Source: Weissella confusa
GTDB lineage: Bacteria > Bacillota > Bacilli > Lactobacillales > Lactobacillaceae
Direction of reading: 5' to 3'
NCBI GenBank assembly: GCA_041871065.1
Contig: CP168942.1
Span: 1,458,501-1,522,500, forward strand
DNA: 64,000 nucleotides
Shown here: positions 5,710 to 61,170 of the stretch, one piece after another
Layout of the letters: every line of letters starts with the position of its first letter
Position numbering within the stretch: position 1 is the first letter of the stretch
Made by a program: the position numbers and the translations under genes
The notes under the pieces: model-generated
What the model was told of the DNA's origin: nothing
The model's input: the letters and a program-made list of their open reading frames with translations, nothing else
Databases searched by the model: none

Positions 5710-6309
5710 CTACTTAATCTTCAATACTCGTCCAATAAACAACACGTTAGACATAAGACCGTTGAGTCGCTTCAAGTTGCCAACGCTCATGTGAAAGCTA
5801 TTAGCAATAGATGCCAGCGTGTCGCCGTCTTGTACCGTGTATGTGTTCTCTGGGCGTGTTTCAGGAACCGGCGCAGTCTCTACTGGCTTTGGCATGAAAA
5901 TACTTGCCCAATCATGTGATTGAGCTGGTGCCTCCGGTTCAGTCGGCGTAACTGGTACTTCTGGCGTGACCGGTTGCGGGTCAACTGGCGCACTCTCTAC
6001 CGGCGCTTCTGGTTGAACAGCTGATGATGATGAGTCTGGTTGAGCAGGTTGTACGTCAACAGCTGCACTTGATGAAGCCATTGATGACGAATCTGAAGCG
6101 GATGAAGCTGAATCAGCTACAGAAGATGTAGCCTCACTTTGTCCGACAATCGTCGCCTCGCTTTCAGCTTGATCAATATCTTCTTGTGGCTCACCAGGAA
6201 CCAACTTCAACAAGTCAGCCTTTTGTGCGTTTGATGGATACTCAATACCATGTGAATCAAGCCAGGACTTAATTTCGGTAACAGTATTCTTATCAGTGAC
6301 AATATCCAT
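5710..6309 (-). CDS. HeH-like plus LysM protein encoded among the capsid genes
   Basis: A 199-residue protein with three parts. Residues 9-38 form a HeH/SAP-like helical motif (TVTEIKSWLDSHGIEY...ADLLKLV). Residues 45-150 are a low-complexity Ser/Ala/Pro/Glu/Val linker. The last 45 residues are a LysM domain (YTVQDGDTLASIANSF, NLKRLNGL, IGRVLKIK). LysM binds N-acetylglucosamine in peptidoglycan. There is no signal peptide. It lies between the major capsid and adaptor genes, so a capsid-borne or internal virion role is likely. The HeH-like motif recurs in two other proteins of this window. Confidence 0.8.
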   Translation of the reverse strand: MDIVTDKNTVTEIKSWLDSHGIEYPSNAQKADLLKLVPGEPQEDIDQAESEATIVGQSEATSSVADSASSASDSSSMASSSAAVDVQPAQPDSSSSAVQPEAPVESAPVDPQPVTPEVPVTPTEPEAPAQSHDWASIFMPKPVETAPVPETRPENTYTVQDGDTLASIANSFHMSVGNLKRLNGLMSNVLFIGRVLKIK

Positions 6310-7702: not shown

Positions 7703-8335
7703 TTATTTAATGCCAAAGAAGCTGTCAGCAACATGGTTTGATGATGTGCTATTAGCGCGCTCAGCTGCCAATTGTCCACGAGACTTACCAATTGAAGTAG
7801 AAACGCCTGGATTACGTGGCGTAGTACCACGCAATGACTCTTGACGCTTTGCTTCAACTTTTTCATCAACCAACTTAGCGAATGCTGCCACTGCCGCAGT
7901 CGTTTCATCAGCCGTATCACGTACAACGAACGCCAAAGTATCCTCATCAGCAACCATGCCCTTATCAGCAAGCATCTTACTTGCTTCAGACACCATGTTT
8001 GTGTGATTAAGTTGGGCTTGCAAATCATCAGCGCGCTTTTGAGCTGCTAACAATTCTTCACTTGCCTTTTGAGCTTCATGCTCCTTGCGTTGGTCGTCAG
8101 ACATTTTGGCTACCTTTGCGGCTTCCTCTTGGTCTGCTTCCCACTTAGCACGAGCATCAGCAAGGTCCTTAGCGAACTTTGCTTCATTGGTCTTGTTAGC
8201 GCGCGATACTCTTTCAGTTAGCAATGCATTAATGTGCGCTTGTTGTTCTGGTGTGAATTGCACACCGACCTCTTGACCACCGTTGCTGTTTTCGTTTCCG
8301 TTAGCGCCTTGTGCGCCAGTAGGTTCATCAGCCAT
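7703..8335 (-). CDS. Capsid scaffold protein (DUF4355-like)
   Basis: A 210-residue, highly charged protein with a long predicted coiled coil (QAHINALLTERVSRANKTNEAKFAKDLADARAKW region, then EEAAKVAKMSDDQRKEHEA). The C-terminal tail is Ser/Thr/Asn-rich. This is the usual make-up of DUF4355-type scaffolds that direct procapsid assembly. The start ATG 8335 follows GGAGGTATGTAAC. It is preceded by a hairpin terminator, so its supply relative to the portal genes may be tuned by partial read-through. Confidence 0.75.
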   Translation of the reverse strand: MADEPTGAQGANGNENSNGGQEVGVQFTPEQQAHINALLTERVSRANKTNEAKFAKDLADARAKWEADQEEAAKVAKMSDDQRKEHEAQKASEELLAAQKRADDLQAQLNHTNMVSEASKMLADKGMVADEDTLAFVVRDTADETTAAVAAFAKLVDEKVEAKRQESLRGTTPRNPGVSTSIGKSRGQLAAERANSTSSNHVADSFFGIK

Positions 8336-8415: not shown

Positions 8416-8447
8416 AAAAGCGCCCAGCCATTTCTAGCTAAGCGCTT
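8416..8447 (-). terminator. Hairpin terminator between the immunity-like gene and the scaffold gene
   Basis: On the minus strand AAGCGC pairs with GCGCTT around an inner AGC/GCT helix, followed by TTATTG. It lies after the candidate immunity gene and before the scaffold gene, in the middle of a late operon. It could act as a partial terminator. Confidence 0.55.
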
Positions 8448-8455
8448 ATTAACAA

Positions 8456-8752
8456 TTATTTATTCTTCATGACTTGATTGTACAAATCATCAATCAAATC
8501 TTCATATCGATTAACAATATCCCAATCAGGGTTATCGTAATCCCAACTACCGTCAGCTTGCTTGTACCCAGCAATAGACAAAAACTTCTTTAGTTCTAAA
8601 TAATCATTAGCCCTAAATTCAAACCGGGTAAAATCATTACCGCGTTCAATTTTAGTGGCTTTTAGCAAATACTCAGAGGCACTATTTTTAATGAAATCTA
8701 CATCATTGTTAGGCAGTTCAAACTGAACTATTTTATTCGACTTCGTCAACAT
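8456..8752 (-). CDS. Candidate immunity protein for the MuF-linked toxin domain
   Basis: A 98-residue acidic protein (motifs FELPNNDVDFIKNSASEYLL, DNPDWDIVNRYEDLIDDLYNQV), not recognised from any phage structural family. Its start lies 20 bp inside the end of the MuF-fusion gene with no strong RBS, so it is probably translationally coupled. It is followed by a terminator. A small, acidic, unrelated gene directly behind a toxin-bearing head protein is the standard arrangement of a toxin-immunity pair. The function is inferred from context alone. Confidence 0.5.
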   Translation of the reverse strand: MLTKSNKIVQFELPNNDVDFIKNSASEYLLKATKIERGNDFTRFEFRANDYLELKKFLSIAGYKQADGSWDYDNPDWDIVNRYEDLIDDLYNQVMKNK

Positions 8753-9587
8753 GATACACCGTAATAATTTTCCCTTCTTTTTTATTTACAACCAGAAGCA
8801 CGTCGTTGTCACCATTATACCAAAACACATCATCACCGGGCGCTTCCGTGATTAAGGTGTTGTCTGACACTAGTGTCTTTTTGAAATCTTCTACTGTAAT
8901 ATCACGCTCATACGCCCGTTGAATAGCATGAAAATTAACTTGCTTAATGACTGTACCGTCAACTGCCTTAATTCCTCGAAGCGCAAACCACTCTTCTGGG
9001 ATATCTTTCAACGATTTAATTTCTATTGGTTCTTCTGGCTCTTGATCAATGTTTTCATAATCATCATCAGAATTATCATCATTGCCGATTTGAGTTCCAG
9101 CCAGTATGCCACCAAAAAAAGAAAGGTCTGGTTTAGAATCATCTTCCACACGAACCAATGTGCAACGGCAGTTTGGATGGAATGGAACCAACGTCTGTGC
9201 ATCCCCAAGCGAATACGTCTTGCCAACATACGGCAAGCAATATTGGCACGCGCCAAATTCGTTGATAATCATCACTTGCTGGTCCTTGCTACCCGGCAAA
9301 TCACGATATTGCGATAACTCTCTTTCGCGGTCATCTGCAGACTTCCAAGCAGCTACCTTAGCTTCACGGTCAGCAATTGCTGCATACGTTCGGATATTAC
9401 GGGCAGCAGAAGCACTGAATGAGCGTAAATACCACCACAAGCCCATATAACCACCAACCATTTCAGCTAGTTGCTTACGTCGCTCTGCTTCGTCTTGCTC
9501 TTTCTCTTTCTTAGCCGCGTCAACATAGTCTTTCAATTCGGCCAGATAATCATCATCACTGTAGTTTTCGTAATCATTGTCAGCCAT
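8733..9587 (-). CDS. MuF-type minor head protein fused to a DUF4258/BECR-like toxin domain
   Basis: A 284-residue protein. The start (9587) lies one base after the stop of the preceding half. Residues 1-45 are a charged linker. Residues 55-150 match the end of Mu gpF-type head morphogenesis domains, with CQYC (114-117) and PFHPNCRC (135-142). An acidic linker (165-192) leads to a C-terminal domain (195-284) with FHAIQRAYERDIT (219-231), VFWYNGDNDVLLVV and IITVYHVDE. That pattern resembles DUF4258 and other RelE/Barnase-EndoU-type (BECR) small nucleases. Temperate phages are known to carry MuF-linked polymorphic toxins. The toxin assignment is by pattern only. Confidence 0.7.
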   Translation of the reverse strand: MADNDYENYSDDDYLAELKDYVDAAKKEKEQDEAERRKQLAEMVGGYMGLWWYLRSFSASAARNIRTYAAIADREAKVAAWKSADDRERELSQYRDLPGSKDQQVMIINEFGACQYCLPYVGKTYSLGDAQTLVPFHPNCRCTLVRVEDDSKPDLSFFGGILAGTQIGNDDNSDDDYENIDQEPEEPIEIKSLKDIPEEWFALRGIKAVDGTVIKQVNFHAIQRAYERDITVEDFKKTLVSDNTLITEAPGDDVFWYNGDNDVLLVVNKKEGKIITVYHVDEVE

Positions 9588-9588
9588 A

Positions 9589-10203
9589 CTACATTCCTCC
9601 AGTAATAATCGCCCATTGCTTAGCGCTCACTCCTTGCTGGATAGCTTTGCTAATCTCAATCGATAAACTAGCAAGGGTATTATCAAACGACGTCCAGTAG
9701 GCTTGTGAGGGCGTTTTCTTGTCGAAAGAAGCGTGGGACAATTCCTGAACTTTACTATCAGGTAACGTGGACTTAATGCCCGTGTACTTTGCTTGTCGCT
9801 GATACTCGTCTTTGAACTCATCGTTAAGCGTTGAGTCAAATAACTTGTATGAATCAATTGCGAACGGCAACATCAGTAAACCCAGCAATGACTGAACATA
9901 CATTTCCATGTCTGAAACCCCCATAGTAAGAAACGCCATTTTGCGCTTCTTAGCGTTGATTTCAGACGTTCTGGGTAATTGTTCGGCCAGCTTCTTCAAA
10001 CGGTTAATATCAGCAGCATTTGGCGCCTTGGTTAGTATTCCGCTATCAATGTGGTCATCAGCACTGTGAGTAACAAAAAAAGCGCTCAATTCCGCGCTCA
10101 TCTTATCAGTATGTTGATCAGCTTTCTTATCAAGCTTCACATTGATGTCGTAGTCATGCTTCATTGTGGCAAGCATGTGTTGCTTTTCCTGTGATAGTTG
10201 CAT
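9589..10203 (-). CDS. Minor head protein, N-terminal half of a split MuF protein
   Basis: A 204-residue mainly helical protein ending in FDNTLASLSIEISKAIQQGVS, which looks like the middle of Mu gpF-type proteins just before the RTE helix. The matching part (SAARNIRTYAAIADREA) opens the next gene, one base downstream. The pair therefore looks like one MuF protein divided in two, either naturally or by an old frameshift (the frames differ by one). It starts immediately after the portal gene. Confidence 0.65.
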   Translation of the reverse strand: MQLSQEKQHMLATMKHDYDINVKLDKKADQHTDKMSAELSAFFVTHSADDHIDSGILTKAPNAADINRLKKLAEQLPRTSEINAKKRKMAFLTMGVSDMEMYVQSLLGLLMLPFAIDSYKLFDSTLNDEFKDEYQRQAKYTGIKSTLPDSKVQELSHASFDKKTPSQAYWTSFDNTLASLSIEISKAIQQGVSAKQWAIITGGM

Positions 10204-11633
10204 TACTTAGCCTCTTGCTTATCAAAATCGGCATCCGTCTCATCACTGAGTGAGCCCATCATGCTCTTAGCAGCGTCCTTTTGCTCTCGTTCCTTGGCCT
10301 TGATAACTGCATCAGGGTCTTCAATCGTTGAAATCTCTGACAACGCGGTCTTACGGTCAACACCAGCGTCAAGCATTACCTTGGCTGTGTTGGCTTCGTC
10401 TTGCACGTTGTGTGGCACAGTTCGTTTGAACGTCATTTTGACGTTGTTTGCATAATTCTTATCACCGGTATCAAGCGGTAGCGTTGCTCCAATGGTGAAT
10501 GCCAAGCGCCACATTTGGCGCAACGACATTTTGAACTTGCGCTCCTTCATGTTTGCTGCCGTACTCATTGACTGCAGCTTAAATTCAAGCGAAGTACCTG
10601 ACGCATTACCAAACACATCATCATTGAAGTTGGCGACGTTTGACTTGTTGTAAATCATGTCGATAACCCGGTCCAAGAAGTTCTCTTGGATACCATCAGC
10701 GTCTGGCTTGTTCATAAAGTCAATCGTCACATCACGTTCAGTATCTACTGACGCAACGTTAATGACGCGCTTATCAATCATATCTTTGATGATGTCAGGT
10801 TTAAGCTTAGCGTTAATCACCTTCATGATGGTGTTTGAGAAATAATCAATGTCATTCCCCTTATTGCTCAAGGCAACTTCAACCGCATCAATCAAGCTCA
10901 TAACTTGCTCAAACAGTCCCTGACGCTCCGTTGACGCGTAGAACTCAACCATTGGCACATTCATAAATTGGTTATCCATTACTTCTTCCGAAATGGTCAT
11001 TTCAGCACCGGGCGTACCAGTGAATGAATACGCATCCGTCTTGGTGTACAACGTGCCTGATAACTCACCGTTACGTTGCTTTTGTGTGTAGTAGATACCA
11101 AACACTGGACGCTTCTCAATTGAGCTGTCATACACAATAAAGCCGTTACGCGGGTCAACTGGTGCGACACGCGTCTCTTTCTCCTCGTTTTGGTAAACAA
11201 GAACGTACGAACGGCCGAAGATATCAACTTGCTTTGCCAATTCAGCAACAATGTCAGTCAAATCATTAATATCAACAAACTTGTTGATTGCTTGATCAAG
11301 CTCATCATTGGGCTTGCCGTTGTCGTTGTAATCGAACTTAACCGGTGTACCAGCAAAGTATCCGACTTCTGTATCAACCAATTCCTTGGCGAAATTAACA
11401 ATCAAGCGATTATCAGGCTTACCGGGTGCTTTAGACATCTTCTCTAAGATTGAATGCTTACCCAAGTAATACTTCATAAGCTTGTTGAACCAGTTATGCA
11501 TTGCACGGTTGTGCTTGCTTAATAGTTGGCTCAATTCATCAGGAGCCAGCATTTCATCCCCGACGCCCTGGTCGAAGTAGAAGACATTATTATCATCAGA
11601 CGATAATCTGTCGCTATTGAATCTAAACGCCAT
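10203..11633 (-). CDS. Portal protein (SPP1 gp6-like)
   Basis: A 476-residue portal that forms the dodecameric DNA entry ring. It has the family's N-terminal helices (LSQLLSKHNRAMHNWFNKLMKYYLG), ELVDTEVGYFAGTPVKFDY, and the central FGRSYVLVYQNEE, NVPMVEFYAS and GTSLEFKLQSMS motifs. Its acidic C-terminus ends DFDKQEAK. Length fits SPP1-type portals. ATG 11633 overlaps the terminase stop (TAATG), and the next head gene overlaps its own stop, so the genes are coupled. Confidence 0.92.
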   Translation of the reverse strand: MAFRFNSDRLSSDDNNVFYFDQGVGDEMLAPDELSQLLSKHNRAMHNWFNKLMKYYLGKHSILEKMSKAPGKPDNRLIVNFAKELVDTEVGYFAGTPVKFDYNDNGKPNDELDQAINKFVDINDLTDIVAELAKQVDIFGRSYVLVYQNEEKETRVAPVDPRNGFIVYDSSIEKRPVFGIYYTQKQRNGELSGTLYTKTDAYSFTGTPGAEMTISEEVMDNQFMNVPMVEFYASTERQGLFEQVMSLIDAVEVALSNKGNDIDYFSNTIMKVINAKLKPDIIKDMIDKRVINVASVDTERDVTIDFMNKPDADGIQENFLDRVIDMIYNKSNVANFNDDVFGNASGTSLEFKLQSMSTAANMKERKFKMSLRQMWRLAFTIGATLPLDTGDKNYANNVKMTFKRTVPHNVQDEANTAKVMLDAGVDRKTALSEISTIEDPDAVIKAKEREQKDAAKSMMGSLSDETDADFDKQEAK

Positions 11634-18234: not shown

Positions 18235-18747
18235 TTAATCGACTTCTTCTGCTACGTCGTTCTTGAGAATAATCAGTTGATTCAATCCCTCGATATATTT
18301 AATTGACTCATCTGCCTTATGCTCCAAGTCTCGAATGCGTTCAACCGTCATTTTGTAGAAGTTGTCTGCATCTTCTTCGCTAGTGTCATAAGATAGGTAT
18401 GAAAATTTTGCACTATCGCGGTAGATGTCATGCGAAAACGCACTGATGTGATCCATTTTTAGACGTTGTGCCGCCTTTGCAAGGTCGGTTTTTAGTTCAT
18501 CTGGGAAATCATTCGATAAGATGTGATAAACGGTCACAATGACCTTGCTGTGAGGATTGATGACCATACCAACTTCACCGCTATGCCATACTTGTGTGCC
18601 GTTATTTTGCATCTTGACCATTTCTGCATCCATGTTGAATGACGTCAGCCAGTTCTTCCGATTATTTCGCTCCGTTTTAAAGCGGTTCTTCAATTGCTCT
18701 GCTGCATGCTCACTGAACTCATACAGCTCAATACGCTTAATTCCCAT
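18235..18747 (-). CDS. Hypothetical phage protein
   Basis: A 170-residue protein. The N-terminal part (ELYEFSEHAAEQLKNRF ... VWHSGEVGMVINPHSKVIVTVYHI) resembles the DUF4258/RelE-like fold pattern (H..Eq..R, then strands with VTVYH). The C-terminal half is helical and acidic. A small nuclease-like or polyvalent domain is possible but not shown. No strong RBS is visible at ATG 18747; a tiny upstream frame overlaps it. Confidence 0.5.
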   Translation of the reverse strand: MGIKRIELYEFSEHAAEQLKNRFKTERNNRKNWLTSFNMDAEMVKMQNNGTQVWHSGEVGMVINPHSKVIVTVYHILSNDFPDELKTDLAKAAQRLKMDHISAFSHDIYRDSAKFSYLSYDTSEEDADNFYKMTVERIRDLEHKADESIKYIEGLNQLIILKNDVAEEVD

Positions 18748-30978: not shown

Positions 30979-32070
30979 ATGGCAAGTATTTACAAGCGCG
31001 GATCAACTTGGACTGCAAATGTTTTCGTCATGAAAGATGGCCAGCGACGGCGCAAAACAAAGTCTGGTTTCCGAACAAAAGCTGAAGCAAACGGCTGGGC
31101 AATGCAGACAGAGGCCGATAAAGTCAATCAAACGCTGGTACTACCTAATAAGATTTCGTTTCCAGACGCTTTTGATAACTGGTACCAGACATACAAAGAG
31201 CCTACACTTTCGGCAGCTACTAAGCGCTGGTATAAGTTCACAAGTGGCGTATTACATGAACGTTTTAATAACGTACGTCTATCATCAATGGACCGTCAAC
31301 GTTTTCAGAGTTTCTTAAATGATTTTGGAAAGACACACGCAATTGAAACAGCTCGCAAAATAAAAATGCACGTTCATCAAATGGCTGAAGCAGCAATCAT
31401 TGATGAAAAATTATCAAAAGACTTTACTGCTAGCACGAAAGTTACTGGTTCAGATGGCAAGTCTTCTGATATGAAGTTCTTAGAGGCCGACGATATGAAA
31501 AAACTTGTTGATCATATTAATGAGCGACTAGTTGTAACACGACCAGTTACCGACATGATGATTCTAACGGCTCTACACACTGGTGCGCGGTATTCAGAAA
31601 TAGCAGGGTTAACATGGACCGACATTGACTTTGATAACAGCCAAATATCAATAAACAAGACTTGGGACATGGTTAACAAGGAATTCAAGGGTACAAAGAC
31701 GAAAGGTTCCAATCGCACCATTGATGTGCCGACTGTATTAGTTGAGCAACTGTTAGAGTGGCGTAAAGTACACCCTGAAACAGTTTTTGTATTTCAAGGT
31801 AAACATGCCTACCCTCCGACAAACAATGCGGCAAACAAGCAATTAGAGCATAATTTGAAGCAAATTGAAGCCGAAAAGATTATTACGTTTCACGGTTTGC
31901 GACACACTCATGCAAGTTGGTTGTTGTCTCAAGGAGTCGATGTGAAATATGTGTCCGAAAGACTTGGTCACTCAGGTATCGAAATCACCTTATCAACGTA
32001 CACGCACCTACTTGATCATGAACGAAAAGACGAAGCTCAGAGGTCAGTAAACCTACTAAATAACCTATGA
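30979..32070 (+). CDS. int: Tyrosine-family integrase
   Basis: A 363-residue integrase. An N-terminal arm-binding domain (SIYKRGSTWTANVFVMKDGQ) is followed by a core-binding SAM-like domain and the catalytic domain. Catalytic residues are visible: Arg in TGARYSEIAGL, H-x-x-R in FHGLRHTHASWLL, His in LGHSGIEITLSTYTHL and the Tyr of that motif. It catalyses integration at the adjacent tRNA-Leu. RBS AGAAAGGTTAGG. Confidence 0.95.
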   Translation: MASIYKRGSTWTANVFVMKDGQRRRKTKSGFRTKAEANGWAMQTEADKVNQTLVLPNKISFPDAFDNWYQTYKEPTLSAATKRWYKFTSGVLHERFNNVRLSSMDRQRFQSFLNDFGKTHAIETARKIKMHVHQMAEAAIIDEKLSKDFTASTKVTGSDGKSSDMKFLEADDMKKLVDHINERLVVTRPVTDMMILTALHTGARYSEIAGLTWTDIDFDNSQISINKTWDMVNKEFKGTKTKGSNRTIDVPTVLVEQLLEWRKVHPETVFVFQGKHAYPPTNNAANKQLEHNLKQIEAEKIITFHGLRHTHASWLLSQGVDVKYVSERLGHSGIEITLSTYTHLLDHERKDEAQRSVNLLNNL

Positions 32071-48035: not shown

Positions 48036-49289
48036 TTATTCAGCGTATGCAGCCTTCAACCAGACCGACTCACCATTCATCTCTACTTCAATTGATGATA
48101 CAACACGTTGCAATACCTTGTATCGTCCATTCAAAGTGAAGTATTCGGGAACACCGTTGTTACCAAGACCGTTTTGATCCGCCAATGGGTTGCCATGACG
48201 GTCGGTCAACGTTACTGATACAGCCGGCATATCGTTGTGATAATCTGCTACTGGAATAGCCATATCATTGTTTCGAACGTACACACCACCCAACTCGTAT
48301 TGCCAACTATCTAGTACGAATACACCGTTAAACTCTGCCGAGTCATCTTGCGTGTTTGCGTCCAAGATTTCGACATTTTTCTTGTTTACCCATGAATAGA
48401 TGTCATCAAGCAACACGCGGTCACCATCAACTTCTAACACCTTGTGTGGTACACCCTTAATGAAGTCTGGGATAGTTTCACCAGTCGCATAGTGTGTTGC
48501 GCTGAAGTTAACCTTTACGGTCATTCCCGCTGCAATATCTGACTTTGGAGTGTTATCAGCTTCCTTACCGGCAACCACAGCTGGCGTGTCCGTGTTTGGC
48601 TTGCTAGGATTACCGTTCTTGTATCCATTATCAGTGATACCAGTCAGGTCAATATCACCATCCAATCCACCATCAATGTATGATGCCGTGAATTGGAACA
48701 ATTGCACGTTGTCAAACGAAGGAAAGTAATTGTAGTTTGGCGTTGGCGTAACGTTGTAATCAGGATACTCGGCCAACCACAATGCGTACGAATTAGCGAT
48801 ACGTTGCAAATCAGTTGAATCTTGCAAGTAGTTCTTATATCCGTAAACCATTGGTGTGTAACCAGCGTCCTTGATGCGTTGCAAGGCATGCATGATTACG
48901 TCGGTATTCTGTCCTCCACTCTCAACATCAAGCGCAACGATTGACCCCTTTGGCGTTTGTACCTTTGGTAAGAAGTAATCAAGCACCGCATCAGCTGTGG
49001 CATAGTCTGTAATGTCCTGCCACCACACATACGTGTGTGCACGCTTGCCCTGGGCGACTGCATATTGCACTTGCGTGGCATAAGTAGATTGATCATAGAT
49101 ATACCCGTGATAACCACCAATTTGAGCGATGGCAAACTTATCATGGCCATATCCAAACTTACCTTGTGAACCTTGGTAGATTGACCAATCAACACCCTGG
49201 TCGCCTTTGGCAGCATGTACTGATGGTACTGAGCCCATAATTAAAAGCGCTCCAGTCGAAACCAAAGCGCCTTGTAGCAATTTATTCAT
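48036..49289 (-). CDS. Endolysin: GH25 muramidase with SH3-like wall-binding domain
   Basis: A 417-residue lysin. A signal-like N-terminus (LVSTGALLIMGSVPSVHAA) precedes the GH25 barrel, with GVDWSIYQG (catalytic Asp) and GSIVALDVESGG (acid residues) and WLAEYPD. The region from about residue 255 (DIAAGMTVKVNFSATHYATG ... VPHKVLEVDGDRVLLDD) is an SH3-type binding domain, followed by a second beta domain. It cleaves the glycan strand to release virions. The export signal is notable for a holin-using phage. RBS GGTGG. Confidence 0.92.
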   Translation of the reverse strand: MNKLLQGALVSTGALLIMGSVPSVHAAKGDQGVDWSIYQGSQGKFGYGHDKFAIAQIGGYHGYIYDQSTYATQVQYAVAQGKRAHTYVWWQDITDYATADAVLDYFLPKVQTPKGSIVALDVESGGQNTDVIMHALQRIKDAGYTPMVYGYKNYLQDSTDLQRIANSYALWLAEYPDYNVTPTPNYNYFPSFDNVQLFQFTASYIDGGLDGDIDLTGITDNGYKNGNPSKPNTDTPAVVAGKEADNTPKSDIAAGMTVKVNFSATHYATGETIPDFIKGVPHKVLEVDGDRVLLDDIYSWVNKKNVEILDANTQDDSAEFNGVFVLDSWQYELGGVYVRNNDMAIPVADYHNDMPAVSVTLTDRHGNPLADQNGLGNNGVPEYFTLNGRYKVLQRVVSSIEVEMNGESVWLKAAYAE

Positions 49290-49602
49290 GTGTTTCCACC
49301 TCATTCATCTTTTTAACAGCCCATTCAATTGCTTCATCAATCTGCTTAGCAGTGAACAAATGAGCCTTGTCAGCCTTCATCAGATAATCTGTAATCGACT
49401 TGATTGCTTGTGCTTTTTGGGTTTGGCCACCGTCAAAGGTCACCTCAGCCCACTTAACCACAGCTTCTGCAATACCAAGCAAATTTGTTAACCGCTTATT
49501 GCGGGCAAATCGTGCTGATAGCCAACCAATGGCCAAAATTAAAAGCGCTGGCAGGATTCCAATTTCCCACAGCGCTTTTAGCAACTCGATTAAGTTATTC
49601 AT
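49282..49602 (-). CDS. Holin (LLH-type)
   Basis: A 106-residue protein with one N-terminal membrane segment (GILPALLILAIGWLSARFA), then an amphipathic charged C-terminus (NLLGIAEAVVKWAEVTF, IDEAIEWAVKKMNEVE). This fits the LLH/Phage_holin_6_1 family. It overlaps the lysin start by 8 bp. Confidence 0.82.
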   Translation of the reverse strand: MNNLIELLKALWEIGILPALLILAIGWLSARFARNKRLTNLLGIAEAVVKWAEVTFDGGQTQKAQAIKSITDYLMKADKAHLFTAKQIDEAIEWAVKKMNEVETHE

Positions 49603-49834
49603 GGTATCGCTCCTTTTCAAATAAGGTTTTAATTTGCTCGTCGTGCTTTACGAGATGAAGCTCATGCTTATCAAGACGATCATCTTGATGTCCTAGTTTA
49701 GCCGTTAAATCCCTAATGTCATTAGAAAGTTTGTCAAATGAGCGTACGAACGTGAACTTGATGATAAATCCTAATCCCGTTAGAAACGAACCAATGACGG
49801 ACAGCCAGCTGACTAGGTCATGTGGTAATTGCAT
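49595..49834 (-). CDS. Second holin-like / XhlA-like protein
   Basis: A 79-residue protein: a membrane segment (LVSWLSVIGSFLTGLGFIIKFTF) then a coiled coil (DKLSNDIRDLTAKLGHQDDRLDKHELHLVKHDEQI). Single-span plus coiled coil is typical of XhlA-like holin partners. It overlaps the holin gene by 8 bp. Confidence 0.72.
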   Translation of the reverse strand: MQLPHDLVSWLSVIGSFLTGLGFIIKFTFVRSFDKLSNDIRDLTAKLGHQDDRLDKHELHLVKHDEQIKTLFEKERYHE

Positions 49835-49846
49835 AGTTCAACCCCG

Positions 49847-50125
49847 TTATGCTTCCGTTGCAGCTGCATTCAATGAAGGCGTTGCCTCATCAGCCTTTTT
49901 AAATACGAAATCTTGGAACTCCGTCCATTGCTTACGAAATTCTGCGATGTTTTCCTTATATACAGCAACATAATTATCAGGGATATAGTAACTCACTTGT
50001 GGCATTCCATCAGAATTGATATTGCCGTTAAATGTTGCATATACCACGTTTTGCTTGTTCCCATCATTGTCAACCTTTTCAGCAAAAAGCTCTGCATCGA
50101 ATGTAGTTCGTACGTTAATCTTCAT
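49847..50125 (-). CDS. Hypothetical phage protein of the lysis cassette
   Basis: A 92-residue protein, MKINVRTTFDAELFAEKVDN..., beta then helical, with an Ala-rich tail. It is located between the tail tip and holin genes, where small accessory tail or lysis proteins occur. RBS GGAGGATCAACAAG. Not recognised. Confidence 0.6.
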   Translation of the reverse strand: MKINVRTTFDAELFAEKVDNDGNKQNVVYATFNGNINSDGMPQVSYYIPDNYVAVYKENIAEFRKQWTEFQDFVFKKADEATPSLNAAATEA

Positions 50126-50279
50126 CTTGTTGATCCTCCGTGTGTTCCGCTAATTGTTCATGTAAATTTTGCACTTCAACTTGCAACAGGGCTACCTGTG
50201 CTTTCAATTCGGCATTCTCAATCGCGCGTGTCGCGACTTCCAAACCCAATGTTTGAATAATTTGTTGATTTTGATCCAT
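50115..50279 (-). CDS. Small coiled-coil phage protein
   Basis: A 54-residue protein (MDQNQQIIQTLGLEVATRA...) with a heptad-rich coiled coil (ENAELKAQVALLQVEVQNLHEQL) and acidic end. RBS AGGAGGAAAAGAA. It overlaps the next gene by 11 bp. Resembles XkdX-type small proteins in place and size only. Confidence 0.6.
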   Translation of the reverse strand: MDQNQQIIQTLGLEVATRAIENAELKAQVALLQVEVQNLHEQLAEHTEDQQDED

Positions 50280-50297
50280 TTCTTTTCCTCCTAAATT

Positions 50298-53200
50298 CTA
50301 ACCCATATCAACGTTATACCAACCAGTAGCCGTTCCGTTGCTATTGAATCCGGTTGGTATAGCTGCTGTTCTGATACCACCAAAAGCTTTAGCAATCTTT
50401 GTAAGGTTGATAGCTGTTCCGTTTGACGACAAATAAATGTCGGAACCTGCATAAACAAAATAAGCAGAAGGACCACCGAAAGTTGGATAACTTCCTCCGT
50501 TTAAATTCGATGCCCTTACAAGCAATCTGTCGTCTGTCCCTTGAATTTTAATACCCCCTCTCATTTCTAATGGCTGGTTGAACAACACGTTATCTTGGAA
50601 ATTAAACCCTTCAATCGTTCCGGGTAGATTAGACGGAACCGAACCAACTCTGTACCAACTTAACTTGGTATCATATGGGTTTCCTGCGTAATTCTGCGCC
50701 CCCCAAGCCATGAAATCACCAGTTGATTCAAGTCCGAAATAAAGTCCTTTCTTAGAATTATCCTGATATAGGTCATTAACACCAATTCGACCAATCGAAC
50801 GGTTTGACTTATCAAACTTCATTCCGTCTTTGTCAAAAACAGTGGTTGCCAAACCTGCGCTAACGGTCATGCCTTCAGAGTCAATTGAAGTCGATCCATA
50901 ACGTCCATCCCAATAGGTTCGTATAAAGTTCGCAACGTTACCTGAAAGTTTATTAACGTCAAGGTTAAGAATGTTAGCATCCGTAATCGAAGCCTTGGCT
51001 ATCTGTGCGCCGCCGATTGACGCGTCCTTGATGACAGCGCCATTCAGCCAGTTGTTTCCTAAGAACGTCGTGTCCGCTGATACCGTTAATTTCTTGGCGG
51101 CAATTGTCATTCCTGAAGGGTCGCCGTTAATTCCGTTAATTAAATTACCAGCATTATCTTTTATACCGATTGCCCAATTATCTTGGAACAATTGCAAAAC
51201 TGTTTGATTACTAGACTTCGAACCGGGCATGTATCCATAATCTTTTGAACCACTGTACATAGACAGATGGCGGAATGAAACCTTACCACCATTCCAACCC
51301 ATACCAAATGAAACGTACGCTGCATTCGCGGGTGTCTTAACCGTGAATGAATATTGTGGCCAAGCTCCGCCTATCGAGCCACCAAAGTAATTAGTTGCAT
51401 CCGAACTGATCAATACATGGTCGCTGGTGTAATAACGAATATATCTTGCAAACGATACTTGCGATGAAGTTGCCCAACCGTCACCTTCTACCAGTTCAAA
51501 TGAACCACTATACGTTGAGTTAGGCATCGTAGGTATTGGATCAGAGTATAACCAAGATGATGAATTCCCACCATAATCGTGAATTAAACTCATAGTTCCA
51601 TCTGGGTTTGGCCCATTAACACTGACATTGTTTGATTTTCCAGCCCCAACCTTAACCGTAGCGCCCCAAGGGGTATCTACGTGCCAGCCCGGTAATGTTC
51701 CGTTAACGACCTCGAACTGTGAATTATTCAACAAATTTAATGATGAAATCTGAGCTAACAGCGCATTACTTATTTGAAGCAACGATGATTGGTATCCGTC
51801 TGTGACTGATGTTATTCGCTGACTAATCAAATCCGTCATTTGCTGTCTAACAGAATTGTCACCGGTTTTTCTGTTATCAATCTCATCATTAATTTGATCT
51901 GCTAATTGTGTTCGAACTGATTGAATGGCATTATCAGTGTCTTCAGGCGCTGTGTGCCAATCAGATACCACATTTCCTCGTTCAAGCTGGATATTATCAA
52001 TAACTTTCCAGCCACCTGCAGCCGAATTTTTTATGAAACCAAATCGTAGCTTTGTAATCGTTTTGTCGACTGTCAAAGTGAACGTTTTTGTGTACCGTTG
52101 CCAAACTTGTTGGCCTCCAGTTGTAACGTGGTTGGCGTGCTCCATCATCACACCATACACGGGTTGTCCATCATCTCCATACGCGTAATCAGAAGCTTGT
52201 CCCATCGCAGCAGTAGCCGTGGCGTAGTAATAACTCATCGTCCATTTTTCGCCGGCTTTAATGGTTACCGGCTTTGGAAGCGTAAAGTAGCTGATTATGT
52301 CTGCACCTGAAGCGGATGTACCATCATAAACACGTCCCATGTAATCACCGAACGGCTGCGGATAAGTTGCGGTCTGCGTAATTGGTGTAAGGCCGTGTCC
52401 GTTACCCGTCTCGAAGCCACCATCAACGATATAATTTTGCGTCCCAAGCTGGAAGTTTGCAACGGTAGTTTGAACGCCCTGGGCGGTGGTCAACGCGGTT
52501 GTTGCCGCATTACTTGCCTGAATAGCTATTGTCTGTCCGTTATTAGCCAAGTTCCACGTCGCGCTCAGTCCCTTACTAGGATCGTTAACAACTCCTGTGA
52601 TGCCGTCAACGTCTAACTCCAGTGACGATACTCGTGCGTTGTTATTATAATTTCCAGGGACATAATCGCCCACTTTATTTGCAAATACTAGCATTGGTTG
52701 AGCATAGTAGTTAGTGCCTGAATTTCCATTCATATAAATGTTGAACGAGATGTACGCTGTATTGGCTGGTGTCGTCACATTCGCTACCAATCGTTGCCAA
52801 GTAAGCCACCTTCCGGAATCAAAGTTTGAACGTCCGATATAGTGTTTGTTCGAATCGTAATACTTCAGATAGATAGCACCAGTTACCATACCATTAAAGT
52901 CGCTCGAACTGTATTGCCAGATAGATGCTGTAATGGGCGTTTGAGGACCAACCGGAATTAAACTAGTATGGATAGCATTAGTTGATGTCGAATTAACTTG
53001 CTTTCGCAAAACTGAGCTTCCGTTATACTTACCTCCTGCAATCATCCAGCTGGTGCTTGGTTCATTACCATCAGTGAATGAAGTTGTACTTTCAATTGAC
53101 CCACCATCAAACCAGCCTTGTAAATCAGGGCTAAACTCAGTATTAAACAACTGATTGACCTGCCCCATTGCATTAACTTGTGTCTGCAATTGCGTAGCTG

Positions 53201-55016
53201 CCAGTTGAATAGCACTCGCCGTCTGGTTGAACGTCGTGTTCTTCACGTACGCGGATGCAACCTGTGAGCCAAAATTAGAAATTGCAAGGCTAGTAATAGC
53301 CGTTGCGTTTTGCGAGGCCGTTGCAACGGCTTCATTTCGGGCTACCGTCGCATAACTACTTGCAGTCACGTCAGCTGATGTAATTGCAGTAGCAAGCTTG
53401 CCGTTCAACGAGTCAGAAGTTGACGTAATCTTGACGCCAACGTTCGAGCTCAATGCATTCACTGCAGCAGCGGCACCGGACATAGCGGCTGTGTACGCAC
53501 TATTAGCCGCAGATGAACCCTTAGCCGCTGCACTGTTCGCCATGCTTGACGCGTTAGACGCCAAGATTGAGCGTGCAGTTGAAGCGCTAGCCAATGCAGC
53601 TGCAGCGCTTGCAGATATTGAATTAGCAATTGAAGCTTGCATCAAATTCAATGAATCGGCATGTGATGTTGCTTCGTTTACTGCACTATCGACAGCATGG
53701 TCAATCCTCTCGTTTGTTTGGGTATCTACGCTGTCCACCCACTTGCCATTGACCCATACTTTAACGCCCGAATTTTCACCATCATTCCAGAACCACGTAT
53801 CACCTTCTTGTGGATGTTCCGGCGCATCACGCCCATAATGATTTTTGCTTTTTCCGTTTGCACTGACAATAGCTTGATTGGCTTGCTCCTTGACCTCCGT
53901 CACTTTATCTTGCAAGTCGTTCAACGCGTTCTTGTTACTATCTGCCCAGCTTACCTTAGCTGTTCCAATTGATAGCTTGGTAACACGTTCTGCCACCGGA
54001 TCATAGTGCAGTTCGTTAACAATTGCTGTTACGTTAACACCAAATTCAGGCACATAAACTGTCACGGTATCAGTAAGGCCGATTGTTTCTAACTTTGCGA
54101 ACTTGTCGGCATAATCTGCACTATCTTGTAGGCTTTCTACTTCAACCTCAACCGTGACTTCTGGCAAATCTTTTCCAGTATTAGCCGACTTAACAAACCA
54201 GTCCGCAGCAAACGCATTAATCCTCGCCTTGATTTGGTCGTCAGTGTCGCCTTCGTCAACTTTAACGTCTTGTGATACATCAACCATCTTCGAATAAACG
54301 AGTGGATAGTTACCCATTCGTGAACTTTGAACTGTTGCGCCCTCGATTGTTCGTGAAACATCAGTTGAGTTAACGGTTACCGTCGGAACGATTTCAGTCG
54401 TCAAGTTGGACACATCAACCGTGTACTTCAATCCGGCAATATTTTTACCCAAACGGAACGTCGCAACATTGTCACGTCCGCGTCGATTGAACATCGCAAC
54501 ACGACGATTTTCACGCTTTAATTCACCGCCCCAAATTTGCAAGAATGAACCTTGAGTTCCAGCTATTGCCTCCATCGGGTTAACGTATCGAAGTTGAGAC
54601 TCGCTTGTGTGTGTGATGTCTGAGTAGAAAGTGAAAATGTGCGGATGCAACGTTGATTTTTGAATGGCTGTCATTGCTGCCTGACCATCGCCTAACATGT
54701 GAATTGTCTTCGATAGATTATTCGTTAAATCATATGTGATTGAATCAGCTTCAATCATCACCGCATAGCCAGTGATATCCAACGCTACCGAAACAATGCG
54801 AAACGCGTGATTATCGTCCAATGGTGACGGCTTAGCAAGGATAATATTACCTTCACTGATATCGGCGTAATGTTGACCGTTCACTGGATAATATGCCGTT
54901 AAGTTAAGCAATCCGTTTCGCTGTTCATGAATATCGACGTCGTACAAGTCCCCCAGTTGACCCAAGCCGTTATTCAAAAAATCAATTTCATCACTTGAAT
55001 ATAGAATCGGTGTCAT
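50298..55016 (-). CDS. Tail-associated (Tal) tip protein with lectin-like modules
   Basis: A 1572-residue protein. Residues 1-380 are a Tal/prophage-tail N-terminus (LNNGLGQLGDLYDVDIHEQRNG; SNLTTEIVPTVTV). A short WxWNDG-type region and a long Ala/Ser-rich coiled segment follow. Three beta-sandwich modules begin LFNTEFSPDLQGW, NYIVDGGFETGNG and LLNNSQFEVVNGTLPGW, each resembling carbohydrate-binding modules. The C-terminus looks like a receptor-binding head. It forms the tail tip and binds cell surface sugars. ATG 55016 follows GGAGGACGCT. Confidence 0.87.
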   Translation of the reverse strand: MTPILYSSDEIDFLNNGLGQLGDLYDVDIHEQRNGLLNLTAYYPVNGQHYADISEGNIILAKPSPLDDNHAFRIVSVALDITGYAVMIEADSITYDLTNNLSKTIHMLGDGQAAMTAIQKSTLHPHIFTFYSDITHTSESQLRYVNPMEAIAGTQGSFLQIWGGELKRENRRVAMFNRRGRDNVATFRLGKNIAGLKYTVDVSNLTTEIVPTVTVNSTDVSRTIEGATVQSSRMGNYPLVYSKMVDVSQDVKVDEGDTDDQIKARINAFAADWFVKSANTGKDLPEVTVEVEVESLQDSADYADKFAKLETIGLTDTVTVYVPEFGVNVTAIVNELHYDPVAERVTKLSIGTAKVSWADSNKNALNDLQDKVTEVKEQANQAIVSANGKSKNHYGRDAPEHPQEGDTWFWNDGENSGVKVWVNGKWVDSVDTQTNERIDHAVDSAVNEATSHADSLNLMQASIANSISASAAAALASASTARSILASNASSMANSAAAKGSSAANSAYTAAMSGAAAAVNALSSNVGVKITSTSDSLNGKLATAITSADVTASSYATVARNEAVATASQNATAITSLAISNFGSQVASAYVKNTTFNQTASAIQLAATQLQTQVNAMGQVNQLFNTEFSPDLQGWFDGGSIESTTSFTDGNEPSTSWMIAGGKYNGSSVLRKQVNSTSTNAIHTSLIPVGPQTPITASIWQYSSSDFNGMVTGAIYLKYYDSNKHYIGRSNFDSGRWLTWQRLVANVTTPANTAYISFNIYMNGNSGTNYYAQPMLVFANKVGDYVPGNYNNNARVSSLELDVDGITGVVNDPSKGLSATWNLANNGQTIAIQASNAATTALTTAQGVQTTVANFQLGTQNYIVDGGFETGNGHGLTPITQTATYPQPFGDYMGRVYDGTSASGADIISYFTLPKPVTIKAGEKWTMSYYYATATAAMGQASDYAYGDDGQPVYGVMMEHANHVTTGGQQVWQRYTKTFTLTVDKTITKLRFGFIKNSAAGGWKVIDNIQLERGNVVSDWHTAPEDTDNAIQSVRTQLADQINDEIDNRKTGDNSVRQQMTDLISQRITSVTDGYQSSLLQISNALLAQISSLNLLNNSQFEVVNGTLPGWHVDTPWGATVKVGAGKSNNVSVNGPNPDGTMSLIHDYGGNSSSWLYSDPIPTMPNSTYSGSFELVEGDGWATSSQVSFARYIRYYTSDHVLISSDATNYFGGSIGGAWPQYSFTVKTPANAAYVSFGMGWNGGKVSFRHLSMYSGSKDYGYMPGSKSSNQTVLQLFQDNWAIGIKDNAGNLINGINGDPSGMTIAAKKLTVSADTTFLGNNWLNGAVIKDASIGGAQIAKASITDANILNLDVNKLSGNVANFIRTYWDGRYGSTSIDSEGMTVSAGLATTVFDKDGMKFDKSNRSIGRIGVNDLYQDNSKKGLYFGLESTGDFMAWGAQNYAGNPYDTKLSWYRVGSVPSNLPGTIEGFNFQDNVLFNQPLEMRGGIKIQGTDDRLLVRASNLNGGSYPTFGGPSAYFVYAGSDIYLSSNGTAINLTKIAKAFGGIRTAAIPTGFNSNGTATGWYNVDMG

Positions 55017-55738
55017 AGCGTCCTCCATCTCATCTCAATAGTTGCTGTACCTGCACTCAACTTCACCGTATTAGGCCCTGGTTTCAACATTGGGAATGGC
55101 CCAATTGCCATTTTCGCGTTTTCGTTGACCATTACACCACTGTCTACACGCCACACGTTCTGCATAGCGCTGTCTAGCTCGATTGAGCCACTTACACCAG
55201 TGAACTTATAAACTGTGCCGTTAATCGTCAGATTGATAGCACCGCTACCGGTAATCTTGATGTATGGCTTAGCGGGTGAAAGCGTCGGGTTGGTCAATGT
55301 TGTCTGCGTTGTTCCAATCGTGCCAGTTGGTGCAGGATAGACGTACTTATATGGCGCCGCACTCAACGTCACAGCTACTTCACGATATGTTGAGTTGATA
55401 CCTTTACGTGTCACCTCAGCTTCACCAGTGCGAACGACCTGATACGTGTAGTTCTCATCTGAATACAATCGCAAATCAACATACTTGCCAGTATCTAGCG
55501 CTGCCAAGAATTTTACGATATGTTGTCCGACACTTGGACTCGGCTTAAATCCCACCGTGAACTTAATTGTGCGGTTTTCATAAGCGTTATCGTCAAACAA
55601 AATAGCCCGATCAATACCGACCGGACTAGTGTTCAATGTGTGTTTGCGTTCAGGAATAGTGATTTCTGGGAAGCTGGTAATAACCGCTTGGATGTCCTCA
55701 CTATTCAACTGTCCAATTGTAAAACTTCCCTTGTTCAT
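55013..55738 (-). CDS. Distal tail protein (Dit)
   Basis: A 241-residue siphovirus distal tail hub. N-terminal SFTIGQLNSEDIQAVITSFPEITIPERK and ENRTIKFTVGFKPS belong to the Dit/sipho-tail family; the C-terminal beta domain ends LKPGPNTVKLSAGTATIEMRWR, a typical closing. It overlaps the Tal gene start by 4 bp. Confidence 0.88.
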   Translation of the reverse strand: MNKGSFTIGQLNSEDIQAVITSFPEITIPERKHTLNTSPVGIDRAILFDDNAYENRTIKFTVGFKPSPSVGQHIVKFLAALDTGKYVDLRLYSDENYTYQVVRTGEAEVTRKGINSTYREVAVTLSAAPYKYVYPAPTGTIGTTQTTLTNPTLSPAKPYIKITGSGAINLTINGTVYKFTGVSGSIELDSAMQNVWRVDSGVMVNENAKMAIGPFPMLKPGPNTVKLSAGTATIEMRWRTL

Positions 55739-55739
55739 C

Positions 55740-58304: not shown

Positions 58305-58317
58305 CTATATCTCCTTT

Positions 58318-58551
58318 CTAGAACGTATCGAAATCAGCTTGGTTCGCCTTTTTGACAGGTGATTCATTAGACTTAGCGCGTTCATTAGCTTTTGTTTCAG
58401 AGTTTGCGTATTCAACGATGTAGTCCATTACCTGACCTAAGTCCATCATGCGTAACTCTTCCCAGGACAAGCCCGATTTTTTAGCAATGTATAAGTAGCT
58501 TTCATCATCAAATACATCGTCGGTTTCGTACTCGTCCTTTAGGCTTTTTTT
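58318..58551 (-). CDS. Tail assembly chaperone extension (gpT), made by -1 frameshifting
   Basis: From the slippery site at 58,545-58,551 the -1 frame stays open for 77 codons (SLKDEYETDDVFDDESYLYIA..., KANQADFDTF) to TAG 58,318-58,320. It has no start codon with an RBS, so it should exist only as the gpGT fusion with the upstream gene. Located directly before the tape measure gene, whose RBS lies in AAAGGAGATATAG. Confidence 0.85.
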   Translation of the reverse strand, partial: KKSLKDEYETDDVFDDESYLYIAKKSGLSWEELRMMDLGQVMDYIVEYANSETKANERAKSNESPVKKANQADFDTF

Positions 58552-58892
58552 GTCGAAATTGAGGTCATAGCAATCTCGACAATATCTTCCAAAATGTCGA
58601 AAATTGGGAAGACTTCAAATCCTTCAAACCACTTGTCATATGGCGCAATGTTAACATCTGCATTCTTGGCGTAAATGTAGGCCATATCTTGTACTAATGT
58701 GATGTCCTTGTTGAACAAAACGCCAGCCTTTTCTGCGTCCGTTTCAGCACTAGCCGCCTGTTGAGCCAGCTCCAAGAACTTTCCAAAATCATCAAAGAAA
58801 TCACGTCCAAATTCATTGCGATAAAAGATTGGTGTAGCACCGGATGAAACTAACGTTATTTCCTTATTTCCAATAGTGATTGCCTTTTGCAT
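58539..58892 (-). CDS. Tail assembly chaperone (gpG)
   Basis: A 117-residue protein, MQKAITIGNKEITLVSSGATP, ending MTSISTKKA. Near its 3' end the sequence ACA-AAA-AAA-GCC-TAA contains the heptamer A-AAA-AAA in the right frame for -1 slippage. This is the abundant short chaperone; the fusion (gpGT) is the minor form. Position between the tail tube and tape measure agrees. Confidence 0.9.
   Translation of the reverse strand: MQKAITIGNKEITLVSSGATPIFYRNEFGRDFFDDFGKFLELAQQAASAETDAEKAGVLFNKDITLVQDMAYIYAKNADVNIAPYDKWFEGFEVFPIFDILEDIVEIAMTSISTKKA
58545..58551 (-). promoter_or_regulatory. Programmed -1 frameshift slippery site
   Basis: Seven A residues on the minus strand form the heptamer A-AAA-AAA, read as ACA-AAA-AAA in the gpG frame, just upstream of GCC-TAA. 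The -1 frame downstream stays open to the tape measure gene. Confidence 0.88.
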
Positions 58893-58946
58893 GTCATTGC
58901 TCCATTTCTATTTTCGATATGTATGCCGGGTTTCCCCGGCCAGTCA

Positions 58947-59528
58947 TTAAACCGTTGGTGCGCTTGCGCCAGGTACGTAAACAGCAGTAAACCAGTCGTC
59001 GTACTTAGCAGAGCCTTGTGCAGCCTTACCCTTAATCTTGTAGTCATAAGGGTCTGCCATTGCTGAAAATTCGAACTCAGCAGTTTGTGCGTCAATCTTG
59101 TCACTCTTGGTTGCTGAACCATCACCAGCGCGTGAGAATGCCACGTTATACAAGACGTGTCGAACGTGCTTCTTATCTCCTGAAAACTCAAAGGCCATTG
59201 CGACCTTTGAACCATGGTTATCAGCATTTTCAACCACTACACCATCGGCGTTCTCAACGTTACCAAACAGCAACGCTTCAATTTCGGGTTGCAAGTAAAG
59301 CATCGTTAGCTTTCCCGTGTACCCTTGGTTGTTTTCTTCCTTGTCGTAAATAATATCGTCAGCATGGACTTCCAAAGCGTCTCCGTTTGGATCCAATGTC
59401 AATTCAGTTGCTCCACGCCAAGGAACAGGTGTTCCGTACGTCAATTTAGTGCCACTGTCTGTAATTTCAAACAAATGCACATTGCGCAAACCGTACTTCA
59501 CCTTGTTGGTATCATTCGATGTTGTCAT
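58947..59528 (-). CDS. Major tail protein (phi13/TP901-like)
   Basis: A 193-residue tail tube subunit. KVKYGLRNVHLFEITDSGTKLTYGTPVPWRGATELTLDPNG and FEFSGDKKHVRHVLYNVAFSRAG are phi13-type tail tube patterns. The C-terminal tail ends YVPGASAPTV. It stacks as rings to build the tail. Follows the tail terminator gene by overlap. Confidence 0.88.
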   Translation of the reverse strand: MTTSNDTNKVKYGLRNVHLFEITDSGTKLTYGTPVPWRGATELTLDPNGDALEVHADDIIYDKEENNQGYTGKLTMLYLQPEIEALLFGNVENADGVVVENADNHGSKVAMAFEFSGDKKHVRHVLYNVAFSRAGDGSATKSDKIDAQTAEFEFSAMADPYDYKIKGKAAQGSAKYDDWFTAVYVPGASAPTV

Positions 59529-60818: not shown

Positions 60819-60829
60819 AAGTGCCACCT

Positions 60830-61153: not shown

Positions 61154-61170
61154 GTTGCATCAGTCCTTTC

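What the first reader, a model, noticed from the sequence alone, without database searches (positions are those of the whole stretch)
8456..9587. MuF-linked toxin domain with a candidate immunity gene in the head operon of prophage 1
The MuF-type head protein ends in a separate ~90-residue domain (H220, R224, R228 pattern FHAIQRAYERDIT; closing IITVYHVDE) that looks like DUF4258/RelE/BECR nucleases. Its neighbour is a small acidic unrelated gene, overlapping by 20 bp, followed by a terminator. MuF-associated polymorphic toxins are known in temperate phages. The exact toxin-immunity pair here could be new, and a virion-delivered nuclease would be unusual biology.
Basis: partly seen in the sequence, partly recalled or inferred. 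Interest (0 to 1): 0.72.

Follow-up and report, generated by a model that had tools for sequence, protein, structure and literature searches.

The report
Phage head protein carrying swappable toxin
A minor head protein of a Weissella prophage ends in an exchangeable toxin-like domain, probably an RNA-cutting enzyme, next to a likely protective gene; sister phages carry other domains in the same slot, so it looks like a new and slightly unusual case of known phage-borne toxins.

Summary
In a Weissella prophage, gene 9587-8733 (minus strand) encodes the C-terminal half of a MuF minor head protein plus a C-terminal domain (residues ~206-284) distantly related to DUF4258. The next gene (8752-8456) overlaps it by 20 bp, encodes 98 acidic residues, and is followed by a terminator hairpin supported by compensatory changes.

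Comparative evidence supports the toxin-immunity reading. Related Weissella phages carry six different tail domains on this head protein (four of them on heads 92-98% identical), one a recognised toxin (Ntox50); in the loci read, a small ORF always precedes the scaffold gene. A profile built from other phages' domains finds this one, and relatives on RHS proteins, one with a related acidic neighbour.

MuF polymorphic toxins are known (Jamet 2017; Zhang 2012). New here are this toxin/immunity pair and a MuF carrier split into two genes, seen only in Weissella among genomes sampled.

Against or unresolved: below the Pfam cut-off; acidic while its relatives are basic; the 98-residue protein is not shown to belong to the relatives' immunity family; packaging, delivery and nuclease activity untested; structure prediction unavailable.

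The parts
10203..11633 (-). SPP1-type portal protein, immediately upstream (genomic context)
   Evidence: PF05133 E 5.7e-93; TIGR01538 E 1e-84
9589..10203 (-). MuF-N: N-terminal half of the split MuF minor head protein (204 aa)
   Evidence: phrog_115 positions 29-226, E 1.1e-11; weakly matches the first part of single-gene minor head proteins such as that of phiEf11 (27.8%, E 5e-4)
9138..9587 (-). MuF-C, head part (about residues 1-150) with the CxxC...HPNCRC motif; a GGAGG precedes its ATG and overlaps the end of MuF-N
   Evidence: phrog_115 positions 269-344, E 3.2e-9; junction sequence; motif at residue 94-113 in 6 of 6 Weissella loci and at 233-298 in the 12 of 24 other loci where it was recognised
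8736..8972 (-). C-terminal toxin-like domain (about residues 206-284; H220, R224, R228)
   Evidence: DUF4258 E 6.7e-4 sub-threshold; first of 707 frames with an independent domain profile, E 2.9e-5
8456..8752 (-). Candidate immunity gene, 98 aa, pI 4.8, overlapping the toxin gene by 20 bp
   Evidence: on the same 6 viral contigs as the window-type domain and in the same two genus genomes
8418..8447 (-). Terminator-like hairpin after the immunity gene, at the cassette boundary
   Evidence: compensatory changes in an alignment of 9 loci
7703..8335 (-). Scaffold protein; marks the downstream end of the exchangeable cassette
   Evidence: PF14265 E 1.5e-16; phrog_172 E 1e-30

Best explanation
It is a MuF-family polymorphic toxin with its immunity gene, in the packaging/head operon of a temperate Weissella phage. 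Shown by sequence comparison: a conserved MuF carrier, here split into two genes; an exchangeable C-terminal domain related to DUF4258; and a small ORF after it that is exchanged together with it. Inferred: the carrier is taken into the procapsid through the portal in a few copies; the C-terminal domain enters the next host with the DNA and acts there, most likely as an RNase of the BECR (RelE/barnase-like) fold; the 98-residue acidic protein binds and blocks it in the producing cell and in lysogens, so only unprotected cells suffer. My estimates: acts as a toxin 0.8; nuclease 0.6; the 98-aa protein is the immunity 0.8; carried in the virion 0.7; delivered to a new cell 0.55.
For: (1) Cassette swap: L012 and L013 are 83-100% identical in DNA in 60-base bins on both sides of the cassette (one flanking bin 71%) but 12-47% inside it, with one boundary bin of 60%. 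Five loci with heads 92-98% identical carry four different tail domains, 22-33% identical between types. (2) Six domain types on this carrier; in the loci read, a small ORF lies before the scaffold gene. (3) One type is Pfam Ntox50, E 7.6e-12 and 2.7e-11, above cut-off. (4) The domain alone, searched in 395 genomes of the order, gave 5 non-self hits; 4 are C-termini of single-gene MuF-type proteins followed by a 70-90 aa ORF. (5) In 36 of 38 viral-contig relatives (25 distinct pairs) the domain frame is intact with an adjacent 61-90 aa ORF of pI 4.1-4.6. (6) The same domain ends RHS proteins in 3 genomes; in one (L057, domain E 3.5e-24) the neighbour matches the phage immunity profile (E 5.5e-4). 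(7) Toxin and neighbour were found on the same contigs and genomes. (8) Both frames are intact in 8 window-type alleles (window, the other seven); pN/pS is 0.24 in the domain and 0.28 in the neighbour, on few differences.
Against: DUF4258 match below the Pfam cut-off. The domain core is acidic (pI 4.7) while the 36 intact relatives are basic (last 100 residues, pI 8.2-10.5), and it lacks their basic C-terminal tail. The 98-aa protein does not match the relatives' immunity profile (E 93); its best link, to the profile of the A' type neighbours, is rank 1 of 707 frames but E 2.4. The neighbours of L058 (E 0.27), of the RHS proteins L059 and L060, and of L048 also fail that profile at the 0.01 level. 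Immunity-alone search of 395 genomes gave only two non-self hits, both chance matches inside unrelated proteins. No solved structure matches convincingly. No structure prediction, expression, virion or infection data.
Confidence: 0.8

Rival explanations
1. The C-terminal domain is a phage structural or regulatory extension (portal or DNA binding), not a toxin, and the small gene is an accessory factor such as a chaperone.
For: It is part of a head protein, and MuF proteins with extensions of unknown function are common (PMC5576092 Results, part read). The window domain is acidic, unlike its relatives.
Against: A structural domain would hardly be swapped for unrelated domains between phages with 92-98% identical heads, nor share its slot with Ntox50, nor end RHS proteins, one with a related small gene beside it.
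Confidence: 0.1
2. A toxin-antitoxin pair (DUF4258-like toxin with its antitoxin) caught in the head operon, working inside the lysogen rather than by virion delivery.
For: Standalone DUF4258-like genes occur beside small zinc-finger-like partners (L061, L062, by my reading), and DUF4258 is listed among TA toxins (PMC11980606, passages). Both of these pairs are toxin first, as in the window, so gene order does not decide.
Against: The domain is in frame with the MuF head half in the 8 window-type alleles and in its MuF relatives, and its neighbour does not resemble the L061/L062 partners by eye.
Confidence: 0.06
3. A once-active toxin now inactivated in the window's lineage and kept as a passenger.
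For: Acidic core and missing basic tail; L004 has V in place of D229.
Against: Frames intact in the 8 alleles compared; pN/pS 0.24 on few differences; H220, R224 and R228 kept in all eight (window; others).
Confidence: 0.12

Closest known systems
MuF polymorphic toxins of temperate phages (Jamet et al. 2017, PMC5576092; MuF systems in Zhang et al. 2012, PMC3482391)
   Same: MuF head domain next to the portal gene, variable toxin C-terminus, small ORF downstream, phage of a Firmicutes host.
   Different: MuF is split into two genes here. DUF4258 has 0 occurrences in Jamet's main text and 0 in the listing for Zhang; supplements were not read.
Apk2/IapK MuF toxin of Streptococcus pneumoniae and relatives (PMC12226406)
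   Same: MuF toxin with cognate immunity protein; isolated toxin domain shown toxic in E. coli (passages read).
   Different: Alarmone (p)ppApp synthetase with two immunity proteins; here a predicted nuclease-like domain with one neighbour.
DUF4258 (PF14076), BECR-fold toxin family of TA modules (PMC11980606)
   Same: Sub-threshold match over residues 220-279; His/Arg pattern.
   Different: Attached to a head protein; score below the cut-off. The paper's table gives DUF4258 activity as unknown (passages read).
Ntox50 MuF toxins of sister Weissella phages (L009, L014)
   Same: Same carrier, same position, same downstream layout.
   Different: Different toxin domain and different small ORF.

Membership tests
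MuF polymorphic toxin | MuF/minor head domain encoded directly after the portal gene | tested here: met
   Portal PF05133; phrog_115 matches split over the two next genes. TIGR01641 on MuF-C is sub-threshold and PF04233 did not match the window protein.
MuF polymorphic toxin | Variable C-terminal domain on a conserved carrier | tested here: met
MuF polymorphic toxin | C-terminal domain shared with another polymorphic toxin system | tested here: met
   RHS-fused relatives L057, L059, L060.
MuF polymorphic toxin | Small downstream ORF (<150 aa) | tested here: met
   98-aa ORF, 20 bp overlap. That it neutralises the toxin is not testable here.
MuF polymorphic toxin | Toxicity and virion packaging | not testable with these tools
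   Needs expression and virion proteomics.
DUF4258 (PF14076) | Score above the curated Pfam cut-off (25 bits) | tested here: not met
   20.3 bits; filed as a distant relative, not a member.
BECR-fold RNase | Helix plus four-stranded meander fold with catalytic residues | tested here: inconclusive
   In a 30-row alignment H220 is kept in 29, R228 in 28, R224 in 24 rows; no solved relative by sequence; structure prediction switched off.
Small acidic immunity family of the phage relatives | Match to a profile of the relatives' neighbours | tested here: inconclusive
   Window protein E 93; A' type L013 E 0.0047, L048 E 20; window versus A' profile rank 1 of 707 frames, E 2.4.

The most novel reading that the evidence does not exclude
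The split is functional: MuF-N stays with the portal while the toxin-bearing MuF-C is a separate, zinc-ribbon-like cargo that can leave the capsid on its own with the DNA. The Weissella phages would then have turned a fused head toxin into a loadable, ejectable two-part system with interchangeable warheads.
Probability: 0.25. Interest if true: 0.65.

Novelty: new variant of a known kind. Interest (0 to 1): 0.47.

Why it matters
Virion delivery of MuF toxins was proposed in 2012 and 2017; two paper searches listed no demonstration by title or start of abstract, though I read only some of those papers. Here one head gene in one genus carries six tail cassettes, four of them on heads 92-98% identical. 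That is a ready matched set for testing whether the cassette alone changes what an infecting phage does to its host. The split carrier also allows the toxin half and the portal-side half to be followed separately in virions.

Tried and rejected
Structural-domain reading: rejected as less likely because of swapping and RHS fusions. Immunity-alone genome search: its two non-self hits (L028 inside an ATPase-like protein, L029 inside a D-Ala-D-Ala ligase-like protein; names from my reading of the frames) were rejected as chance. Domain hit L025 (stops in the frame, unrelated genes) was rejected as chance. Full-length hits L016-L020 are MuF proteins without this domain and were used only to place the split. 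L092 and L095 were left out of the profiles because the domain frame is interrupted; they were not mended. The match in L058 runs past a stop in the search table; only the part before the stop was used. Weak hits to unrelated families and bromodomain hits of the immunity profile (E 0.08 and above) were treated as noise. Plasmid records gave no match to the domain, phage records only weak ones (E 0.03 and 0.9) and none to the immunity protein; the full MuF-C protein hit one phage record, over the head part only. A viral-contig scan with the L048 domain found only itself. Gene order as an argument against a TA module was dropped: the two standalone pairs read are toxin first. Rejected claim: that the window's immunity protein is shown to belong to the relatives' immunity family.

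Full report
Check of the observation. The two ORFs are at the stated places, on the minus strand: 9587-8733 (284 aa) and 8752-8456 (98 aa), overlapping by 20 bp. The named residues are correct. Upstream lie an SPP1-type portal gene and a 204-aa gene; downstream a scaffold and a major capsid gene. The genome is 2.35 Mb. Its genus is Weissella: a same-genus genome with a 98% identical protein has the contig length of Weissella confusa DSM 20196 contig00003 (144,706 bases). An integrase (named by my reading; its family was not searched) at 30979-32070 next to a tRNA-Leu fits a prophage.

A split carrier. The MuF protein is encoded by two genes. MuF-N (10203-9589) matches positions 29-226 of phrog_115 and MuF-C positions 269-344. 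MuF-C has a GGAGG upstream of its ATG, overlapping the end of MuF-N, so I infer two polypeptides. A search of 397 genomes of the family with the MuF-C head profile hit 40; 6 genomes of the genus including this one score at E 1.9e-72 or better and the other 34 at E 1.4e-10 or weaker. In the 6 genus loci the CxxC...HPNCRC motif sits at residue 94-113. Loci were returned for 24 of the other places; the motif was recognised in 12 of these 24, at residue 233-298 in all 12, and my pattern found none in the other 12. Five hits (L016-L020) are single-gene MuF proteins that end soon after the motif. phiEf11 has a single MuF gene of 939 bp. As far as sampled, the split is specific to this lineage.

The slot is polymorphic. 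Relatives of MuF-C came from viral contigs (9 loci, 15, overlapping), genomes (10 of 100) and named genome contigs (4). On the split carrier I see six C-terminal types: A (window, L001-L006, L011/L036); A' (L013/L037, L054, L048); B (L007/L046, L008/L047, L050); B' (L012/L038, L051, L052); C, Ntox50 (L009/L053, L014, L015/L039); D (L049). A and A' are distant relatives, and B and B' may be. In the loci that I read a small ORF lies between MuF-C and the scaffold gene. L012 and L013 are 83-100% identical in DNA on both sides (one flanking 60-base bin 71%), 12-47% within domain plus small ORF, and 60% in one boundary bin. L049, L050, L051, L052 and L054 have heads 92-98% identical; their tails are 22-33% identical, except L051/L052, which are one type at 98%. 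Heads of the remaining types are less alike (53-79%, L046/L047 96%). Ntox50 passes the Pfam cut-off in L009 and L014. The B, B' and D domains tested have no Pfam family above cut-off.

The domain. DUF4258 is sub-threshold (20.3 versus 25 bits). Searched alone in 395 genomes of the order, the domain hit 6 including its own; 4 of the 5 others are the end of single-gene MuF-type proteins followed by a 70-90 aa ORF. PF04233 or PF06152 was shown for L022, L023 and L026 and, for L024, on L069, whose domain is 100% identical and whose frame has the same length. A profile search in 398 genomes of the phylum hit 11 including its own. Of the 10 others: one more MuF protein (L058), three RHS proteins (L057, L059, L060), one short frame with no carrier seen (L056), and five short frames (L061-L065), of which I read L061 and L062 and scanned L061 with Pfam (DUF4258 at 5.2e-31). 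A viral contig scan gave 38 relatives, 25 distinct pairs after dropping L092, L095 and duplicates. In 36 of 38 the domain frame is intact (L084 and L096 run off the contig's 5' end) with an adjacent 61-90 aa ORF of pI 4.1-4.6; L092 and L095 are interrupted. The ORF picker took the longest frame with any start near the stop, so lengths are upper estimates. Of 16 distinct carriers given to Pfam, 9 match PF04233 and 6 PF06152.

Independent test. Profiles were built from those 25 pairs, without the window or the split-carrier loci; the hosts of the 25 contigs were not determined. The domain profile ranks the window frame first of 707 (E 2.9e-5, database size set to 30,000) and the standalone early gene 18747-18235 second (E 0.0061). 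In a test of 674 frames from 18 loci that I chose, it recovers RHS-linked L057 (3.5e-24), L059 (2.4e-5) and L060 (4.6e-5), MuF-linked L058 (7.4e-6), short-frame L056 (1.3e-30), A' types L013 (0.0021) and L048 (0.0023), and L061, L063, L064, L065 (2.3e-5 to 0.0086); L062 fails (0.16). The immunity profile recovers the neighbours in L056 (2e-5), L057 (5.5e-4) and L013 (0.0035), not those of L048, L058 (0.27), L059 and L060. So the same toxin-immunity pairing exists behind two unrelated carriers, MuF and RHS.

The neighbour. The 98-aa gene lies on the same 6 viral contigs as the full window-type protein. It was found in 2 of 28 genus genomes, the same two that hold the full-length window-type protein among the 27 genus genomes. 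It does not match the relatives' immunity profile (E 93). It is the best of 707 window frames for the A' neighbours' profile, but at E 2.4; pairwise BLASTP to the L048 neighbour gives E 2e-4 over 24 residues for a single comparison, and E 5.9 to L013. Homology is suggestive only. A hairpin after it is kept in 9 aligned Weissella loci, some closely related, with compensatory changes at 3 of 12 pairs and one broken cell.

Results against. The domain core is acidic (pI 4.7); the 36 intact relatives are basic over their last 100 residues (8.2-10.5). The basic tail of relatives is missing, as it is in A' types. pN/pS of 0.24 (domain) and 0.28 (neighbour) rest on few differences in 8 and 7 distinct alleles.

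Mechanism. Established for SPP1: the portal binds gp7, which takes it into the procapsid in few copies (PMC6316719, passages read). Proposed for MuF toxins: loading into the head and entry with the DNA (PMC5576092: abstract, first part of Results, Discussion and passages read; PMC3482391: passages read). Shown for another MuF toxin: isolated domain toxic in E. coli and neutralised by its neighbour (PMC12226406, passages read). Applied here this is inference. PMC11980606 (passages read) places DUF4258 among BECR-fold toxins with unknown activity; an RNase is my best guess.

Known or new. MuF toxins are a known kind. Of 57 papers holding at least two of DUF4258, toxin and MuF, ranked by number of terms, the top one holds two, so none holds all three. 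Listings for Weissella prophage toxins (12 of 198 shown) and MuF toxin plus virion (2 papers) show nothing on this pair by title. A five-term search (10 of 1,075 shown) had no DUF4258 paper among those listed. Supplements could not be read. I rate it a new variant because of the split carrier.

Noticed in passing
L091 2243-2779; L097 2369-2773; L098 2339-2785; L100/L101 2318-2761; L105 1957-2379; L106 2297-2767; L108-L187: The same toxin domain and small acidic neighbour also sit on short proteins with an N-terminal tag like H[YH]G[VI]KGMKWGVRR. A terminase-like gene directly precedes it in L091, L097, L100 and L105 (family confirmed for L091 only; none seen nearby in L106). In 80 of these 120 loci there were 143 tag matches in 74 loci, up to 7 per locus; 133 post-tag regions fell in 54 single-linkage clusters (largest 69), none matching the toxin profile. 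Could be a virion-targeting tag. A paper search for three forms of the motif found one unrelated paper.
   Followed up: partly
18235-18747: Standalone gene in the early region of the same prophage with a weak match to the toxin-domain profile (E 0.0061, second of 707 frames; E 0.06 in the own-genome search); phrog_5083, unknown function.
   Followed up: partly
8418-8447: A terminator hairpin with compensatory changes lies inside the head operon between the immunity gene and the scaffold gene, at the edge of the exchangeable cassette.
   Followed up: partly
L069 500-2791 (domain identical to L024): A MuF toxin gene with an intein-like insertion near its HPNCRC motif (Intein_splicing E 2.7e-7, 30.9 bits, below the 35.8 cut-off).
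   Followed up: no
5710-6309: Head-region gene with a HeH/LEM domain near its N-terminus and a LysM domain at its C-terminus, joined by a Ser/Ala/Pro-rich stretch, next to the major capsid gene.
   Followed up: no
48036-64000: What looks like part of a second prophage (lysin, tail, capsid and portal-like genes by my reading of ORFs); no family search done.
   Followed up: no
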